Origin: Kordia antarctica
GTDB lineage: Bacteria; Bacteroidota; Bacteroidia; Flavobacteriales; Flavobacteriaceae
DNA: 64,000 bases
Direction: 5' to 3'
Assembly: GCF_009901525.1 (NCBI RefSeq)
Contig: NZ_CP019288.1
Coordinates: 186,001-250,000 of the forward strand
Shown here: piece by piece, positions 8,271-19,804 of the stretch
How positions within the stretch are numbered: the stretch's first letter is position 1
Layout: each line of letters begins with the position of its first letter
Made by a program: the position numbers and the translations under genes
Notes under the pieces: model-generated
What the model saw: the letters and a program-made list of their open reading frames with translations, nothing else
What the model was told of the DNA's origin: nothing
Database searches by the model: none

Positions 8271-8300
8271 TTGCGTAAATGTAAAAACATTTTATCTTTG
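8271..8300 (+). promoter_or_regulatory. promoter of the SRP RNA gene
   Basis: A TTG at 8271-8273 and a perfect TATCTTTG at 8293-8300 are 19 nt apart, matching the Bacteroidetes sigma consensus (TTTG and TAnnTTTG). The RNA begins 5 nt after the -7 box. Confidence 0.8.
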
Positions 8301-8304
8301 CAGC

Positions 8305-8397
8305 GGCAAGTCCTACACAACTAGCTCCTGTTGAATCCTCCAGGGCGGGAACGCAGCAAAGGTAGATGGTTGAGCAGTGTGATGTAGGTAGCTTGCC
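8305..8397 (+). ncRNA. ffs: small SRP RNA (4.5S type)
   Basis: A long imperfect hairpin closes with GGCAAG at the 5' end and CTTGCC at the 3' end. Its tip carries the SRP hallmark: a GGAA tetraloop closed by GCG/CGC, then the asymmetric AGCA side loop within ACGCAGCAAAGG. The length of about 93 nt fits the short bacterial SRP RNA without an Alu domain. It binds Ffh and targets nascent membrane proteins to FtsY. A T-rich stretch follows immediately (ATTTTTTATT). A consensus promoter lies just upstream. Confidence 0.93.
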
Positions 8398-8478
8398 ATT
8401 TTTTATTCTCCAAAGTCAAAACTTACTTTCTCCTTTTTTTTAAGCATATTTGTAAAAAAATAACCAAAAACATACTAT

Positions 8479-11642: not shown

Positions 11643-11754
11643 AAATGTTAATAACTCACCAACTATTCTAAAGTGCAAGTTTCTTATCGCATCTTATAAT
11701 AGTGTAATTTTGCACTACATTGCGTTAAGGATTGATGCGGCATCCTTTTTTTGA

Positions 11755-11862
11755 AATTTTGATACGTCATTACGAGGAGGAACGACGAAGTAATCTGTTT
11801 GTTGAATGAACAGATTGCCACGAATTTTCTAAAAATTCTCGCAAAGACGTTTTGTTTCAAAA
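11755..11862. repeat. dispersed intergenic repeat with inverted ends
   Basis: The segment begins CGTCATTACGAGGAGG, passes through AACAGATTGCCACGAATTTT and ends CTCGCAAAGACGT, so its ends are roughly inverted. Related pieces occur at about 38075-38085 (GCCACGAATG) and 38150-38180 (AGATTACTTCACTC, CGTAATGAC). Minus-strand frames through it give no plausible protein. The rest of the 11530-11936 gap holds nothing else I can identify. Confidence 0.65.
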
Positions 11863-11936
11863 AAAGATACAGCGGAAAGCCTGTTAAAACGCCCAAAACA
11901 GCAAACACAACTTTTATATATTAAACTAAAGAACAC

Positions 11937-14688: not shown

Positions 14689-16320
14689 ATGTTATCAGTA
14701 TCTAACTTATCCGTACAATTTGGTAAACGTATATTATTTGACGATGTAAATACGTCATTCAATCAAGGAAATTGTTATGGTGTTATCGGAGCTAACGGCG
14801 CTGGTAAATCTACGTTTCTAAAAATTATTTCAGGAAAAATGGACCCAACTTCGGGACATGTCCATTTGGAACCTGGCAAACGAATGTCTGTATTAGAGCA
14901 AGATCACTATGCTTATGACGATCATACAGTACTTGAAACGGTCATTAAAGGAAACAAACCTTTATTTGCTATCAAAAAGCAAATGGATGATATCTATGCG
15001 AAAGAAGATTTCTCTGATAAAGATGGAGAACGCGTAGGAGAGTTGCAAGTGGAATTTGAAGAAATGAATGGCTGGAATGCCGATTCGGATGCAGCAGCAT
15101 TGCTTTCTAACTTAGGAATCCCAGAATCCAATCATTACACATTAATGGGTGAACTTGATGGAAAACAAAAAGTACGTGTATTATTAGCACAAGCACTTTT
15201 TGGAAATCCTGATGTATTAATCATGGATGAGCCAACAAACGACTTGGATTTTGAAACTATTTCTTGGTTGGAAAACTTCTTGGCAAATTATGACAATTGT
15301 GTCATTGTGGTTTCGCATGATAGACACTTTTTAGATTCTGTATGTACACACATTTCAGATATCGATTTCTCTAAAATAAACCACTACAGTGGAAACTATA
15401 CATTCTGGTATGAAAGTAGTCAACTAGCTGCCAGACAACGTGCACAACAAAATAAAAAATCAGAAGATAAAGCAAAAGAATTGCAAGAATTTATCCTTCG
15501 GTTTAGCGCAAACGTAGCAAAATCAAAGCAAGCAACGTCGCGTAAAAAAATGTTGGAACGTTTAAAAATTGAAGACATCAGACCTTCAAGTCGTCGTTAT
15601 CCTGCCATTATTTTTGACCGAGAACGCGAAGCTGGAGATCAAATATTACATGTAGAAGGATTATCAGCTAAAGCCGATGGCGAAATATTATTCCAAGATG
15701 TAAACATTAACCTTGCAAAAGGAGACAAAGTGGCTATTATTTCTAAAAATTCTCGTGCTACGACTGCTTTTTATGAAATAATTAATGGAAATGTAAAGGC
15801 TAACGCCGGAACGTATAATTGGGGAGTTACTACTTCGCAAGCATATTTGCCAGTTGATAACGCACCATTCTTTGACAATGATATGACTTTGGTAGATTGG
15901 TTACGTCAATGGTCAAAAACAGAAGAAGAACGCGAAGAAGTATTCGTTCGTGGATTCTTAGGAAAAATGATTTTTAGTGGAGAAGAAGCGTTAAAAACGG
16001 CAAGAGTACTTTCGGGAGGAGAAAAAGTTCGTTGTATGTTATCACGAATGATGATGATTAGAGCAAACGTATTAATGCTTGATGAACCTACAAACCACTT
16101 AGACTTAGAAAGTATTACAGCGTTTAACAACTCGTTAAAAAACTTCAAAGGAACAGTGTTGTTCACAACACACGATCATGAGTTTGCACAAACAGTTGCC
16201 AACAGAATCATTGAATTAACTCCAACAGGCGTTATTGACAGATACTCAACGTTTGAAGATTATATGGAAGACGATAAAATAAAAGAACAACGTGATAAAA
16301 TGTATAGTGTAGAAGCATAA
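14689..16320 (+). CDS. ABC-F family ATPase (YbiT-like)
   Basis: The 543-residue protein has two ABC ATPase domains and no membrane segments. Domain 1 has Walker A GANGAGKST (about 36-44), the switch DEPTNDLD and VVSHDRHFLD. The linker at about 245-300 is charged and helical. Domain 2 has signature LSGGEKVR, DEPTNHLD and FTTHDHEF; its Walker A is degenerate (ISKNSRATT), as is the signature of domain 1 (GELDGKQKVR). ABC-F proteins bind the ribosomal E site and relieve stalled translation or protect from antibiotics. This one resembles the housekeeping YbiT group rather than known resistance types. The cognate terminator follows. Confidence 0.88.
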   Translation: MLSVSNLSVQFGKRILFDDVNTSFNQGNCYGVIGANGAGKSTFLKIISGKMDPTSGHVHLEPGKRMSVLEQDHYAYDDHTVLETVIKGNKPLFAIKKQMDDIYAKEDFSDKDGERVGELQVEFEEMNGWNADSDAAALLSNLGIPESNHYTLMGELDGKQKVRVLLAQALFGNPDVLIMDEPTNDLDFETISWLENFLANYDNCVIVVSHDRHFLDSVCTHISDIDFSKINHYSGNYTFWYESSQLAARQRAQQNKKSEDKAKELQEFILRFSANVAKSKQATSRKKMLERLKIEDIRPSSRRYPAIIFDREREAGDQILHVEGLSAKADGEILFQDVNINLAKGDKVAIISKNSRATTAFYEIINGNVKANAGTYNWGVTTSQAYLPVDNAPFFDNDMTLVDWLRQWSKTEEEREEVFVRGFLGKMIFSGEEALKTARVLSGGEKVRCMLSRMMMIRANVLMLDEPTNHLDLESITAFNNSLKNFKGTVLFTTHDHEFAQTVANRIIELTPTGVIDRYSTFEDYMEDDKIKEQRDKMYSVEA

Positions 16321-16337
16321 TCACGAAAGTTTACATA

Positions 16338-16379
16338 TAAAAAAGTCCCTTGAAATATATAAATTCAAGGGACTTTTTT
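16338..16379 (+). terminator. terminator of the ABC-F gene
   Basis: AAAAAGTCCCTTGAA pairs with TTCAAGGGACTTTTTT around a short AT loop, with a T-run at the end. It also lies at the 3' side of the minus-strand peptide gene and could serve both strands. Confidence 0.88.
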
Positions 16380-16404: not shown

Positions 16405-16557
16405 TTAAGGAAGTCTACAAATTCCATTATAACATGCATATGGAAAATCGCACGGTCTTCTGTGATTACAATAGCGCAATTTACCACCAATGATGTTTCG
16501 TTGCCCTTTTTTATTTATAAAAGAAAATCCGTCAAGATTTGAAATTTTATCTAACAT
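16405..16557 (-). CDS. GG-leader cysteine-rich peptide 1 (bacteriocin-like)
   Basis: This 50-residue ORF starts at the ATG at 16557. The leader MLDKISNLDGFSFINKKGQ continues to a double-glycine site (NIIGG, residues 21-25), the cut site used by peptidase-containing ABC exporters. The mature part of 25 residues has four Cys spaced C-x5-C-x5-C-x4-C (YCNHRRPCDFPYACYNGIC). It is a close paralogue of the peptide at 16972-17127, in which the leader differs more than the core. A palindromic operator and a TAnnTTTA box lie upstream, shared with three other peptide genes. Function is unknown: bacteriocin, signal peptide or disulfide-bonded effector are all possible. Confidence 0.8.
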   Translation of the reverse strand: MLDKISNLDGFSFINKKGQRNIIGGKLRYCNHRRPCDFPYACYNGICRLP

Positions 16558-16581
16558 ACTTTATAATTTTAATCGAAAGAC

Positions 16582-16628
16582 TAAATATACGAAAAAATAT
16601 ATTAAGATGAATTACGGTTTTACCGTAT
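16582..16628 (-). promoter_or_regulatory. operator and -7 box of GG peptide 1
   Basis: Read on the minus strand, the 17-mer ATACGGTAAAACCGTAA (16628-16612) contains the perfect palindrome TACGGT-AAA-ACCGTA. Twenty-two nt downstream is TATATTTA (16589-16582), then 24 nt to the ATG. The same layout is found before three other peptide genes. Confidence 0.7.
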
Positions 16629-16629
16629 A

Positions 16630-16970
16630 GTTTTTAGACTCGCTTCGCTCTTGGATTTTTAGACTCGCTTTCGCTTTTGGAAACGGCTTTGCCTTTAGTA
16701 TCGCTTCACTTCGGATTCGCTCAGTTCAGGTGCTTTTGGTATTTTAGTATGTGAATTACTTGCACATTTGATAAACTTATAAACCTTTCAACTTTTAAAC
16801 TAAAATTTTGTTGTTGGATTGTTGGGCTCGCTTCGCTTTTGGATTGTTAGACTTTCTTAGATCGTTGAGTTTTTAGATATATCAGACTTCCGTCAAGCAA
16901 AATTTGATTCAGTTTCGCATAATCAAGATTAATAGGCGAGATACTGACTAAATTTTACAATAGTTTTGCA
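16630..16970. repeat. degenerate TAGACTCGCTTCGC-type repeat block
   Basis: Between the two peptide genes, phrases such as TTTTAGACTCGCTTCGCTCT, TTTAGACTCGCTTTCGC and GGGCTCGCTTCGCTTTTGG recur with drift. They are the complement of the AGCGAAGCG phrases at 7030, 20030, 33432 and 43914. No gene is visible here. Confidence 0.65.
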
Positions 16971-16971
16971 A

Positions 16972-17127
16972 TTATGGAATTCTTTTACAAATACCACCAT
17001 AACACGCATATGGAAGATCACACGGTCTGCGATGACTACAATAGCGTTGCGAACCACCTAAAATTGTTTGTTGTTGTTTCTTTTCAAGAGCAATAAACCC
17101 TTCTAAATTTAAAATTTTGTGTAACAT
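16972..17127 (-). CDS. GG-leader cysteine-rich peptide 2 (bacteriocin-like)
   Basis: This 51-residue ORF starts at the ATG at 17127. The leader (MLHKILNLEGFIALEKKQQ) ends in a double-glycine site (TILGG). The mature part of 26 residues carries the same four-Cys pattern as peptide 1 (YCSHRRPCDLPYACYGGIC) and a basic tail (KRIP). The core HRRPCD-PYACY is conserved between the two. The operator upstream is the most degenerate of the four known here (TATGGC instead of TACGGT in one arm), but its position relative to the -7 box is unchanged. No transporter or modification gene adjoins it. Confidence 0.8.
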   Translation of the reverse strand: MLHKILNLEGFIALEKKQQQTILGGSQRYCSHRRPCDLPYACYGGICKRIP

Positions 17128-17151: not shown

Positions 17152-17197
17152 TAAACTTAAAAAAACTAATTGTCAGTTAATTACGGTTTTGCCATAT
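17152..17197 (-). promoter_or_regulatory. operator and -7 box of GG peptide 2
   Basis: On the minus strand ATATGGCAAAACCGTAA (17197-17181) is followed after 21 nt by TAAGTTTA (17159-17152) and then 24 nt to the ATG. One arm of the inverted repeat differs at two positions from the version of peptide 1. Confidence 0.65.
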
Positions 17198-17255
17198 TTT
17201 TTTTTAGGCTTACTAATATTTTTTAGCTTAGTACATTATTAAAGCAAAAAAATCC

Positions 17256-17371: not shown

Positions 17372-19804
17372 TTATCGCAACTCAGCACCAAGTTGTTTCT
17401 CAAAACTCTGTTGAAGTTTATTCATAATCTTATCAATCTGTTTGTCAGTCAATGTTTTATGTTCATCTTGAAGCGTAAAACTTACCGCATAACTTTTCTT
17501 GCCTTTTGGCAGATTATCTCCTTGATACACATCAAACAGACTTACTTCTTTCAGCAAATTTCGTTCGCTTTGTTTGGCAATAGTGTCAATTTCGGCAAAC
17601 GTTGTTGCTTCATCAATTAATAGCGCAAAATCTCTACGAACTTTCGGAAATTTAGGAATTTCTTTAAACTTAATCTTTCTATTTTTAGCAACTTCAATTA
17701 CGTTATCCCAATTGAAATCTGCATAAATTACTTCTTGTTTTATATCGAATGATTTCAAAACCTTTCGTTTCACAATACCGAATTCTACCAACTTCGTTTT
17801 ACCTAAACTTAGCATCAATCCTTCCGTAAACAAGTCATTCTTAATAGGCGATACTTTTAATGAATTCAATCCTAAGCGTTCTAAAATTGCCGTAACAATT
17901 CCTTTCGCATAGAAAAAATCACTAGAAACTGCATTGTTTGGTCGCCACGTTTCTGCGGTTGTATTTCCTGTAATTAATACTGATAAATGTTTGTCTTCTT
18001 CCCGATTTTCTTCGCTATACGCGTGATATGTTTTCCCAAATTCAAAAAACTTCAAATCGCTTTGTCTTCTGTTGATATTATGTGAAATTGCTTCCAATCC
18101 AGAAAATAATAATGATTGACGCATTACTGATAAATCATTACTCAACGGATTCAACATCGTTACATTATGTTCCGCTTTCAATTGTTCTGAAAGTTCTACA
18201 TACGAAGCAGTTGTCAATGAATTCGTCATAATTTCATAAAAACCTTGTGAAACCAATTGCGCACCAACAACATCTTGTAATTTATAATCTTCGTAACGAG
18301 ACGTATCAGAAATAGAAGTATGCCATTTTTCATCAAACTTGATGTTGTTATACCCATACACACGTAAAATTTCTTCAATTACGTCTGCTTCCCGTTGTAC
18401 ATCAACTCTATATGCGGGAATTGTTAATCCTAATCCGCCATCAGTTACCGAATTAATTTTTATCTCTAAAGAAGATAAAATATTCTTAATGGTTTCTTTT
18501 GGCAATTCTTCTCCAATCAATTTTGCAACATTTTCGAAAGAAACACGTACTTGAAAATCTTCTATTTTTACTGGATAACTGTCGGTAAGATCACTTGTAA
18601 TTTCTCCGCCAGCCAATTCTTGAATTAATAATGCGGCTCTTTTCAGCGCATATTCAGTAATATTTGGATCAATTCCACGCTCAAAACGGAACGAAGCATC
18701 AGTATTCAATCCGTGGCGTTTGGCTGTTTTACGAACCGAAATAGGATTAAAATACGCACTTTCTAGGAAAATATTAGTGGTTTCTTCGGTCACGCCAGAT
18801 TTTAAACCGCCAAAAACACCTGCAATACACAATGGTTTTTCAGCATCGCAAATCATTAAATCATCTTCATGCAATTCGCGTTCAACTTCATCTAACGTGA
18901 TAAATTTTGTGCCAGCTTCTAACGTTTTTACAACGATTTTGTTTCCAGAAATATAATTCGCGTCAAACGCGTGTAATGGTTGCCCTAATTCGTGCAATAC
19001 ATAATTTGTAACATCAACAACATTATTTTTTGGTGTCAAACCAATCGCTTTCAAACGATGTTGCAACCATTCTGGCGAAGTTTTCACTTGTATTCCAGAA
19101 ATTGTAACACCACAATAACGTGGCGCTAAGGTTTTATCTTCAACTTCAACGTCCATTTTTAAAGTTCTGTTATCAACTCTAAAACTACTCGTAGAAGGTG
19201 TAATGAATTCTAATTTAATATCTTGTTGAGACAATCCAGCTTTCAAATCTCTCGCAACACCATGATGACTCATTGCATCAGCTCTATTGGGCGTTAATCC
19301 AATTTCAAAAACCGTATCATTTTCAATCGAAAAGACTTCGCTAGCAAGCGTTCCAGGAACAAGTTCATCGTCTAAAACTAGAATTCCGTCATGACTTTCG
19401 CCTAAGCCAAGTTCGTCTTCGGCGCAAATCATTCCAAGAGATTCTTCTCCACGAATTTTACCTTTTTTTATTTTAAATCCGTTGCCTTCTGCGTCATACA
19501 AAGTCGTTCCAACAGTTGCCACAGGTACTTTTTGTCCTGCTGCTACATTTGGTGCGCCACAAACTATTTGTACAGGTTCGCCGGAACCTAAATCTACAGT
19601 TGTAATTTTTAGGCGATCTGCATTCGGATGTTGCACACATGTCAATACGTGTCCTACAACAATTCCTTCCAATCCACCTTTCACAGATTCATATTTCTCA
19701 ATACCTTCAACTTCTAAGCCTAAATCGGTTAGTAGTTCTCCAGTTTTCTCAGCATTCCAGTCGAGTTGAATAAATTGCTTTACCCAATTGTATGATATTT
19801 TCAT
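17372..19804 (-). CDS. pheT: phenylalanine--tRNA ligase beta subunit
   Basis: The 810 residues match bacterial PheT in length and order. An EMAP-II-like tRNA-binding domain is at about 40-155 (IVVGHVLTCVQHPNADRLKI, IVCGAPNV). The B3/B4 editing domain is at about 210-370, followed by the B5 domain and the catalytic-like core (DASFRFERGID, ADVIEEILRVYGYN, LNPLSNDLSVMRQSLL). The C-terminal anticodon-binding FDX-ACB domain is at about 715-810 (FPKVRRDFALLIDE). It pairs with PheS, which is not in the window. The gene has its own consensus promoter. Confidence 0.97.
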   Translation of the reverse strand: MKISYNWVKQFIQLDWNAEKTGELLTDLGLEVEGIEKYESVKGGLEGIVVGHVLTCVQHPNADRLKITTVDLGSGEPVQIVCGAPNVAAGQKVPVATVGTTLYDAEGNGFKIKKGKIRGEESLGMICAEDELGLGESHDGILVLDDELVPGTLASEVFSIENDTVFEIGLTPNRADAMSHHGVARDLKAGLSQQDIKLEFITPSTSSFRVDNRTLKMDVEVEDKTLAPRYCGVTISGIQVKTSPEWLQHRLKAIGLTPKNNVVDVTNYVLHELGQPLHAFDANYISGNKIVVKTLEAGTKFITLDEVERELHEDDLMICDAEKPLCIAGVFGGLKSGVTEETTNIFLESAYFNPISVRKTAKRHGLNTDASFRFERGIDPNITEYALKRAALLIQELAGGEITSDLTDSYPVKIEDFQVRVSFENVAKLIGEELPKETIKNILSSLEIKINSVTDGGLGLTIPAYRVDVQREADVIEEILRVYGYNNIKFDEKWHTSISDTSRYEDYKLQDVVGAQLVSQGFYEIMTNSLTTASYVELSEQLKAEHNVTMLNPLSNDLSVMRQSLLFSGLEAISHNINRRQSDLKFFEFGKTYHAYSEENREEDKHLSVLITGNTTAETWRPNNAVSSDFFYAKGIVTAILERLGLNSLKVSPIKNDLFTEGLMLSLGKTKLVEFGIVKRKVLKSFDIKQEVIYADFNWDNVIEVAKNRKIKFKEIPKFPKVRRDFALLIDEATTFAEIDTIAKQSERNLLKEVSLFDVYQGDNLPKGKKSYAVSFTLQDEHKTLTDKQIDKIMNKLQQSFEKQLGAELR

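What the first reader, a model, noticed from the sequence alone, without database searches (positions are those of the whole stretch)
16405..17127. Paralogous pair of four-cysteine peptides with an HRRPCD-PYACY core
Two small minus-strand ORFs encode GG-leader peptides whose cores align without gaps through the last cysteine (YCxHRRPCDxPYACYxGIC), with cysteines spaced x5, x5, x4. Core residues are more conserved than leader residues, suggesting selection on the exported part. The compact spacing would allow two disulfides. I do not recognise the core as a described bacteriocin class. The repeat block between the two genes may mark the duplication.
Basis: partly seen in the sequence, partly recalled or inferred. 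Interest (0 to 1): 0.7.

Follow-up and report, generated by a model that had tools for sequence, protein, structure and literature searches.

The report
Two secreted peptides sharing a regulon promoter
A marine Kordia-type bacterium carries two small four-cysteine peptides that look made for export, and they turn out to belong to a large scattered set of such peptide genes that mostly share one precisely spaced DNA switch, so a whole peptide arsenal may be turned on together.

Summary
Two minus-strand ORFs (50 and 51 aa) lie between an ABC-F gene and pheT; each has a 25-aa double-glycine leader and a C-x5-C-x5-C-x4-C core. All 11 held genomes of the genus (Kordia) have an intact homologue at this place; 10 of 11 keep all four cysteines, and leader and core are both under purifying selection.

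The pair belongs to a large scattered family of GG-leader cysteine peptides. Many of these, with lanthipeptide-type precursors, share one rigid promoter: palindrome TAnGGnnnnnCCGTA, exactly 22 bp, then a TAnnTT box, ATG about 70 bp downstream. This gives 346 hits in 11 genomes against 2 for the reversed control, and 8 against 3 with one extra base of spacing. In the window's genome 32 of 34 such sites lead closely into a leader peptide. Gene b has the canonical promoter; gene a has another spacing or a decayed site in its relatives.

Best reading: disulfide peptides exported by a conserved C39 transporter. Antagonism is inferred, not shown.

The parts
16405..16557 (-). peptide a: MLDKISNLDGFSFINKKGQRNIIGG / KLRYCNHRRPCDFPYACYNGICRLP (GG leader / four-Cys core)
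   Evidence: orthologues in 10 other genomes
16972..17127 (-). peptide b: MLHKILNLEGFIALEKKQQQTILGG / SQRYCSHRRPCDLPYACYGGICKRIP
   Evidence: b-type relatives in G001 and, by promoter, G003
16613..16627 (-). palindrome TACGGTAAAACCGTA upstream of a; spacing to the -7-like box is 23 bp (non-canonical)
16584..16589 (-). -7-like box TATATT of gene a
   Evidence: (G000:C1:202584-202627)
17182..17196 (-). palindrome TATGGCAAAACCGTA upstream of b; canonical 22-bp spacing
17154..17159 (-). -7-like box TAAGTT of gene b
   Evidence: (G000:C1:203154-203196)
16339..16379 (.). perfect 16-nt inverted repeat ending in a T run, between the ABC-F gene and peptide a: a likely shared terminator
   Evidence: I5; terminator reading is inference
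16986..17127 (-). duplicated coding stretch (71% identical to 16416-16557)
   Evidence: D1
17179..17204 (-). duplicated promoter stretch (85% identical to 16610-16635)
   Evidence: D3
14689..16320 (+). ABC-F ATPase gene, syntenic neighbour in the genus
   Evidence: the gene name is recognition, not tested by a family search
17372..19804 (-). pheT, syntenic neighbour on the other side
   Evidence: the gene name is recognition, not tested by a family search
47447..47489 (+). another canonical promoter of the same type in the window
47519..47701 (+). GG-leader Cys peptide MLKNISNLGSVLNKSEQKSINGG / KAKCTLNYLWCPPGCVCYVDQVNCVLVQKCDTNSSSS
47765..47807 (+). a further canonical promoter in the window
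47833..48009 (+). lanthipeptide-type leader peptide MKKRNLKTLKLNKDSVSSLANEVVKGG / AFSDGPMC...
   Evidence: NF038153 only 9.9 bits against a cut-off of 22

Best explanation
The two ORFs make small secreted peptides. The 25-aa leader ending in GG is recognised and cut by a C39-peptidase ABC exporter encoded elsewhere (a conserved transporter of about 740 aa, in this genome followed by an HlyD-type gene). The freed 25-26 aa core folds around two disulfides, most likely C1-C3 and C2-C4. They are two members of a dispersed repertoire of GG-leader, Cys-rich peptides and lanthipeptide-type precursors. Many of these have one shared promoter type: a 15-bp palindrome (TAnGGnnnnnCCGTA) fixed 22 bp upstream of a TAnnTT box, where a dimeric activator would act. 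The pair arose by tandem duplication of gene plus promoter before these species split; b keeps the canonical promoter, while a is drifting out of this control. The most likely use is antagonism of other bacteria by released peptides (bacteriocin-like). Shown: ORFs, homology, synteny, selection, the promoter pattern and its association with peptide genes. Inferred: export, cleavage, disulfides, activator, antagonistic role.
For: Intact orthologues in 11 of 11 genus genomes, within 0.6 kb of the ABC-F gene in 10 of 11 and about 4 kb from it in G009; pheT next door in 9 of 11. pN/pS 0.23 for leader and 0.21 for core among 10 a-type orthologues. Own genome: further GG-leader Cys peptides (24 matches at E<=10, some of them spurious). 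Even Cys number in 82 of 104 distinct cores of the GG-type set. C1 and C3 lost together in G001. AlphaFold2 core pLDDT 75-78 with a hairpin. PDB profile hit to the Dumpy DPY module (1oig), same C-x5-C-x5-C-x4-C spacing, E 0.024, weak. Every genome has a C39 transporter of about 740 aa; G003 and G010 have only one C39 match each while carrying 35 and 22 promoter hits; the own-genome one is C39 + ABC membrane + ABC ATPase followed by HlyD. Promoter: 56 of 105 GG-type and 7 of 28 lanthipeptide-type genes have GG-N4-HCCGTA 61-75 nt before ATG, reversed control 0 of 105 and 0 of 28. Fixed pattern with 22 bp: 346 strand-hits in 11 genomes, control 2; with 23 bp: 8, control 3, four of the eight being a-orthologues. 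Own genome: 31 of 34 sites have a leader-peptide ATG at +64..+85, one more at +106, one a GG-type ORF at +220, and one precedes an M57 peptidase lipoprotein (G002: 21 of 27). Looser palindrome, own genome: 24 of 28 strand-sites with a TAnnTT box at the right place lead to a leader peptide, 0 of 36 without it, Fisher p 8e-14.
Against: No immunity, transporter or thiol-oxidoreductase gene sits beside the pair. One conserved gene at a fixed place in every species is unusual for a narrow bacteriocin. Gene a has a 23-bp spacing in G000, G002, G003 and G009 (also with a one-mismatch site in G008), 21 bp in G010, and a decayed site in G004, G005, G006 and G007, so the best conserved member is not securely in the regulon. 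49 of 105 GG-type and 21 of 28 lanthipeptide-type genes lack the loose element (some are downstream genes of operons, some have a DUF805b RNA instead). The structure model is weak overall (mean pLDDT 59) and found no significant match. No expression or activity data were available.
Confidence: 0.55

Rival explanations
1. Signalling: the conserved a-type peptide is a pheromone-like cue, exported by the C39 transporter and sensed by the producer, perhaps controlling the scattered arsenal; the arsenal members themselves are effectors.
For: One conserved locus in 11 of 11 genomes under purifying selection; leader most conserved; clade-specific core changes around the second cysteine (HRRPC against TDEKPC); a LytTR-type membrane protein is conserved in 11 of 11 genomes and its gene has the full 22-bp promoter pattern in G002 and G007, and a palindrome-like site found by the loose search in G008 and G005.
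Against: No receptor gene next to the peptides; the canonical promoter is on gene b and not on the a-orthologues; the LytTR gene lacks the site by these searches in 7 of 11 genomes.
Confidence: 0.2
2. Modified RiPP: the cysteines are used for thioether or other enzyme-made bonds rather than plain disulfides.
For: Lanthipeptide-leader genes share the same promoter, 9 of 29 regulon peptides touch NF038153 (best E 9.6e-5), and a second C39 exporter lies beside a gene that looks like a radical SAM enzyme at L083 (that name is recognition, not tested).
Against: The a core KLRYCNHRRPCDFPYACYNGICRLP has no Ser or Thr, so no lanthionine can form; neither P1 nor P2 matches a RiPP family above cut-off; no modification gene nearby.
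Confidence: 0.1
3. Housekeeping envelope or matrix peptide: a secreted disulfide hairpin with a structural or protective role, without antagonism or signalling.
For: Synteny and purifying selection; similar Cys spacing in eukaryotic matrix modules such as DPY.
Against: Gene gain, loss and decay (b-type only in some genomes, G001 losing two cysteines) and a large, diverse sister repertoire fit competition better.
Confidence: 0.15

Closest known systems
Bacteroidetocins (class IIf bacteriocins of Bacteroidetes; PMC6671954, passages read)
   Same: GG leader, four cysteines, short core, Bacteroidota, ABC transporter/peptidase
   Different: Bacteroidetocin leaders are 15-16 aa (here 25) and cores 42-48 aa (here 25-26); their genes sit with exporter, TM protein and mostly a thiol oxidoreductase (none here); the word Kordia does not occur in that paper's main text; no direct sequence comparison was run here
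NF047792 CCPGW family putative bacteriocin
   Same: sister peptides with CPPGW/CPPNW cores match it weakly
   Different: 19.5 and 17.9 bits against a cut-off of 80; the pair itself does not match
DPY module of Dumpy (PF21164, PDB 1oig) and EB / Dickkopf-type modules
   Same: 1oig has the identical C-x5-C-x5-C-x4-C spacing; 3 of 22 family members touch PF21164
   Different: eukaryotic extracellular modules, E 0.024 only; likely convergence on a minimal fold
Class I lanthipeptide leader family NF038153 (lant_leader_L1a)
   Same: peptides in this genome that touch this model use the same promoter type
   Different: the pair has another leader, and the a core has no Ser/Thr
Competence-stimulating peptide ComC (NF033214)
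   Same: leader of P2 matches at 15.7 bits
   Different: cut-off 50 bits; core unrelated

Membership tests
Double-glycine-leader secreted peptides (mechanistic class) | leader ending in GG before the core | tested here: met
   GG at residues 24-25 in 12 of 12 homologues
Double-glycine-leader secreted peptides (mechanistic class) | C39-peptidase ABC exporter in the genome | tested here: met
   11 of 11 genomes; own-genome protein has C39, ABC membrane and ABC ATPase domains
Double-glycine-leader secreted peptides (mechanistic class) | cleavage after GG and release | not testable with these tools
   needs mass spectrometry
Bacteroidetocins (class IIf) | leader of 15-16 aa | tested here: not met
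   25 aa; definition from passages of PMC6671954
Bacteroidetocins (class IIf) | exporter and TM protein genes adjacent, usually with a thiol oxidoreductase | tested here: not met
   neighbours are the ABC-F gene and pheT
Bacteroidetocins (class IIf) | four cysteines in a 42-48 aa core | tested here: inconclusive
   four cysteines present, but the core is 25-26 aa
NF047792 CCPGW putative bacteriocin | score over the curated cut-off of 80 bits | tested here: not met
   pair: no match; sisters 19.5 and 17.9 bits
Class I lanthipeptides (NF038153) | leader model match and Ser/Thr plus Cys in the core | tested here: not met
   no match for the pair; no Ser/Thr in the a core
DPY module (PF21164) | family model match | tested here: inconclusive
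   3 of 22 relatives match, best E 9.3e-4; neither window peptide matched when scanned alone at E<=10
DPY module (PF21164) | two disulfides in the module's own connectivity | not testable with these tools
   the connectivity of DPY was not verified here; only co-loss of C1 and C3 in G001 hints at 1-3/2-4 in this family

The most novel reading that the evidence does not exclude
A genus-wide switch: one dimeric regulator, still unidentified (a LytTR-type membrane protein conserved in 11 of 11 genomes is a weak candidate), controls dozens of physically scattered secreted-peptide genes of two different precursor classes through a rigid palindrome-22 bp-TAnnTT promoter, so that a whole arsenal of disulfide peptides and lanthipeptide-type precursors is fired together through few exporters.
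Probability: 0.55. Interest if true: 0.8.

Novelty: new variant of a known kind. Interest (0 to 1): 0.62.

Why it matters
As far as I recall, GG-leader peptides are usually found as one or a few genes inside a cluster with their exporter and immunity. Here there are dozens of orphan genes scattered over the chromosome, and many can be recognised by one promoter. That gives a simple way to list such peptides in Kordia without relying on their fast-changing cores, ties disulfide-type peptides and lanthipeptide-type precursors into one likely response, and makes the regulator and trigger directly testable.

Tried and rejected
Known families: NCBIfam and Pfam scans of the pair gave only sub-threshold matches; the PDB profile search and the structure searches gave only weak matches to small disulfide modules, the best being scytovirin at E 0.0037. 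The repeat block as duplication mark: rejected, it recurs in the window. 'Core under stronger selection than leader': rejected. A recent duplication private to this genome: rejected, because the G001 gene groups with b in promoter and leader trees and G003 carries a second gene whose promoter groups with b. I first read the G001 copy as a hybrid of a b-type start and an a-type end (notebook); the core tree groups it with b (0.84 support), so I do not claim a hybrid. A hit in Yonathbacteria (L058) looks like a chance match inside an unrelated long frame, and the L059 hit (Planctomycetota) has no leader. Operator upstream of the exporter operon: not seen. A LytTR regulator carrying the operator: full pattern in 2 of 11 genomes (G002, G007), a loose palindrome-like match in 2 more (G008, G005), none by that search in the other 7, so only a lead. 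Literature: in the listings and passages I saw, no paper of the held library tied Kordia to GG-leader peptides or to this promoter; searches for DUF805b and 'DUF805 motif' returned 0 papers. These are searches of an open-access library only.

Limits of the counts: the 105 and 28 peptides come from loci fetched mostly because of similarity to P0002 and from their flanks, kept by leader regular expressions and made unique by sequence; loci from outside the genus were left out there, and the named Kordia loci L055 and L056 too. The hits were opened only for G000 (34 of 34) and G002 (27 of 27); the other nine genomes' hits were counted, not inspected. Leader calls were made by eye from the printed ORFs. 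The 43 distinct sites were counted by hand from its list and checked.

Full report
Check of the observation. Each has a 25-residue leader ending in GG and a core with cysteines spaced x5, x5, x4; they align without gaps through the last cysteine. The match between them is E 3.4e-19 against the whole genome and 71% over 142 nt. The window lies in a 5,500,985-bp single contig with a window G+C of 33.4%, which fits the 5.5 Mbp and 33.2% printed for Kordia antarctica IMCC3317 (PMC7477175, passages). The species name is an inference; the genus follows from the named Kordia record L056, whose peptides recur in the genus genome G001.

Relatives. In 11 of 11 held genomes of the genus there is a strong full-length match (E at most 1.2e-13), an intact 50-residue ORF in each of the 10 others. 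Four cysteines are kept in 10 of 11 genomes; in G001 the first and third cysteine are R and F. The gene lies within 0.6 kb of the ABC-F gene in 10 of 11 genomes and about 4 kb from it in G009; pheT flanks it in 9 of 11 and was not in the stretch held for G005 and G006. Among 397 genomes of the family searched with the profile, strong matches (E below 1e-28) were found only in the three genus members sampled; seven other genomes gave only weak matches, best E between 7.0e-7 and 8.2e-5, and the genes read at those places are mostly other GG-leader peptides.

Selection. Among the 10 a-type orthologues mean pN/pS is 0.23 for the leader and 0.21 for the core, and the leader is more identical than the core in 31 of 45 pairs. 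Synonymous differences are near saturation in the core (pS 0.71), so the ratio is a rough figure.

History of the pair. The duplicated unit is gene plus promoter: D1 (142 nt) and D3 (26 nt) have the same offset, 569-570 nt. The G001 gene and a second gene in G003 group with b in the promoter tree (support 0.996) and in the leader tree (0.998), and the G001 gene also in the core tree (0.84), while the G003 gene does not. The duplication is therefore probably older than this species. The CTCGCTTCGCT repeats between the genes occur at three further places in the window and are not a mark of it.

A large repertoire. The same genome holds many further GG-leader, Cys-rich peptides with leaders like MLKNILNLxGVxxLxKxxQxxIxGG (24 matches at E<=10, some spurious). 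The C-x5-C-x5-C-x4-C core occurs in 23 of 105 GG-type peptides collected from the genus, the pair and its orthologues included, in several subfamilies. Cysteine numbers are even in 82 of 104 distinct cores, as expected if they pair. Nine of 29 regulon peptides touch the class I lanthipeptide leader model.

The shared promoter. Aligning the upstream regions of the orthologues and of sister genes showed a common element. In the collected set 56 of 105 GG-type genes and 7 of 28 lanthipeptide-type genes carry GG-N4-HCCGTA between 61 and 75 nt before ATG; the reversed control gave 0 of 105 and 0 of 28. The 63 aligned sites give T A c G G t n n w a C C G T A a, then a TAnnTTt box 22 bp further. The box resembles the -7 element of Bacteroidota promoters (recalled). 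The palindrome would then sit near -42, the place of a class II activator (inference).

Rigid spacing. The exact pattern TANGGNNNNNCCGTA-N22-TANNTT has 346 strand-hits in the 11 genomes, 15 to 56 in each, and 2 for the reversed control. With N23 there are 8, control 3; four of the eight are orthologues of gene a. In 397 genomes of the family 98 have a hit, three of them in the genus; outside the genus the counts are 0 to 5 per genome, and the control there reaches 4. So the abundance is a trait of this genus among those sampled.

What the sites precede. In the window's genome 31 of 34 exact sites have a leader-peptide ATG 64-85 nt from the palindrome start; one more has it at +106, one has a GG-type ORF at +220, and one precedes a lipoprotein with an M57 peptidase domain. 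In G002 21 of 27 precede leader peptides; the other six are a close relative of that M57 protein, a LytTR gene, a 251-aa and a 159-aa protein with export-type N-termini, a decayed peptide gene and one site without a fitting ORF. Starting from the palindrome alone (43 distinct sites, 64 strand-hits, control 11), 24 of 28 strand-sites with the box lead to a leader peptide and 0 of 36 without it (Fisher p 8e-14). Two further such peptides with canonical promoters are in this window, at 47519-47701 and 47833-48009.

The pair inside the regulon. Gene b has the canonical 22 bp. Gene a has the palindrome at 23 bp here and in G002, G003 and G009, a one-mismatch palindrome at 23 bp in G008, an intact one at 21 bp in G010, and decayed sites in G004, G005, G006 and G007. 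The most widely conserved member is thus the one that has left, or is leaving, the common control.

Export and folding. Each genome has at least one C39 exporter of about 740 aa; G003 and G010 have a single C39 match each but 35 and 22 promoter hits, so one exporter probably serves many peptides there. In the window's genome the best C39 protein has C39, ABC membrane and ABC ATPase domains and is followed by an HlyD-type gene; the palindrome is not seen in its upstream region. One regulon peptide (site 2785134) is followed by a VKOR plus C39-like plus thioredoxin-like protein, a plausible disulfide-forming enzyme. The AlphaFold2 model from two sequences is poor overall (mean pLDDT 59) with a hairpin in the core (75-78); no PDB match of the model is significant. 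The loss of C1 and C3 together in G001 suggests C1-C3 and C2-C4 pairing, from one case.

Compared with what is known. Bacteroidetocins are the nearest described peptides of the phylum that I found: GG leader, four cysteines, ABC transporter/peptidase. They differ in leader and core length and in sitting beside their exporter and, mostly, a thiol oxidoreductase (PMC6671954, passages). The cysteine spacing equals that of the Dumpy DPY module (1oig), probably by convergence. Papers on Kordia secondary metabolism mention lanthipeptide and proteusin clusters (PMC7477175, PMC10734526; passages); in those passages I saw no mention of this repertoire or promoter. My searches were of an open-access library only.

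Verdict. The pair is real, conserved and very likely exported. Its wider setting, a genus-wide promoter for scattered secreted peptides of two precursor types, is the part a specialist would find surprising. Function, cleavage, disulfides, regulator and trigger remain to be shown.

Noticed in passing
L038, L041, L042, L044, L045, L046, L048 and L011, upstream of GG-leader peptides: DUF805b RNA (RF02914) over its gathering score directly upstream of sister Cys-peptide genes for which the palindrome was not found: a possible second, RNA-based control of the same peptide repertoire.
   Followed up: partly
L182 and L201 (sites 2194918 of G000 and 2581616 of G002): An M57 metallopeptidase lipoprotein gene carries the same canonical promoter in both genomes whose sites were opened (the domain was tested on the L182 protein only).
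   Followed up: partly
L210, L213 (and L214, L217): A LytTR-domain membrane protein gene, conserved in 11 of 11 genomes, has the full promoter pattern upstream in G002 and G007 and palindrome-like sites found by the loose search in G008 and G005.
   Followed up: partly
L170, L171, L178: Three further palindrome sites with a box one base closer precede genes for non-peptide proteins, several with hydrophobic stretches.
   Followed up: no
L084 5209-7106: A regulon GG-peptide gene is followed by a gene for a C39-like, VKOR and thioredoxin-like fusion protein.
   Followed up: partly
window 8297-8402 and 11717-11890: Bacteroidales small SRP RNA and a Flavo-1 RNA, both above gathering score.
   Followed up: no
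L196: A decayed peptide gene in G002: canonical promoter and an intact Cys core, but no open leader.
   Followed up: no
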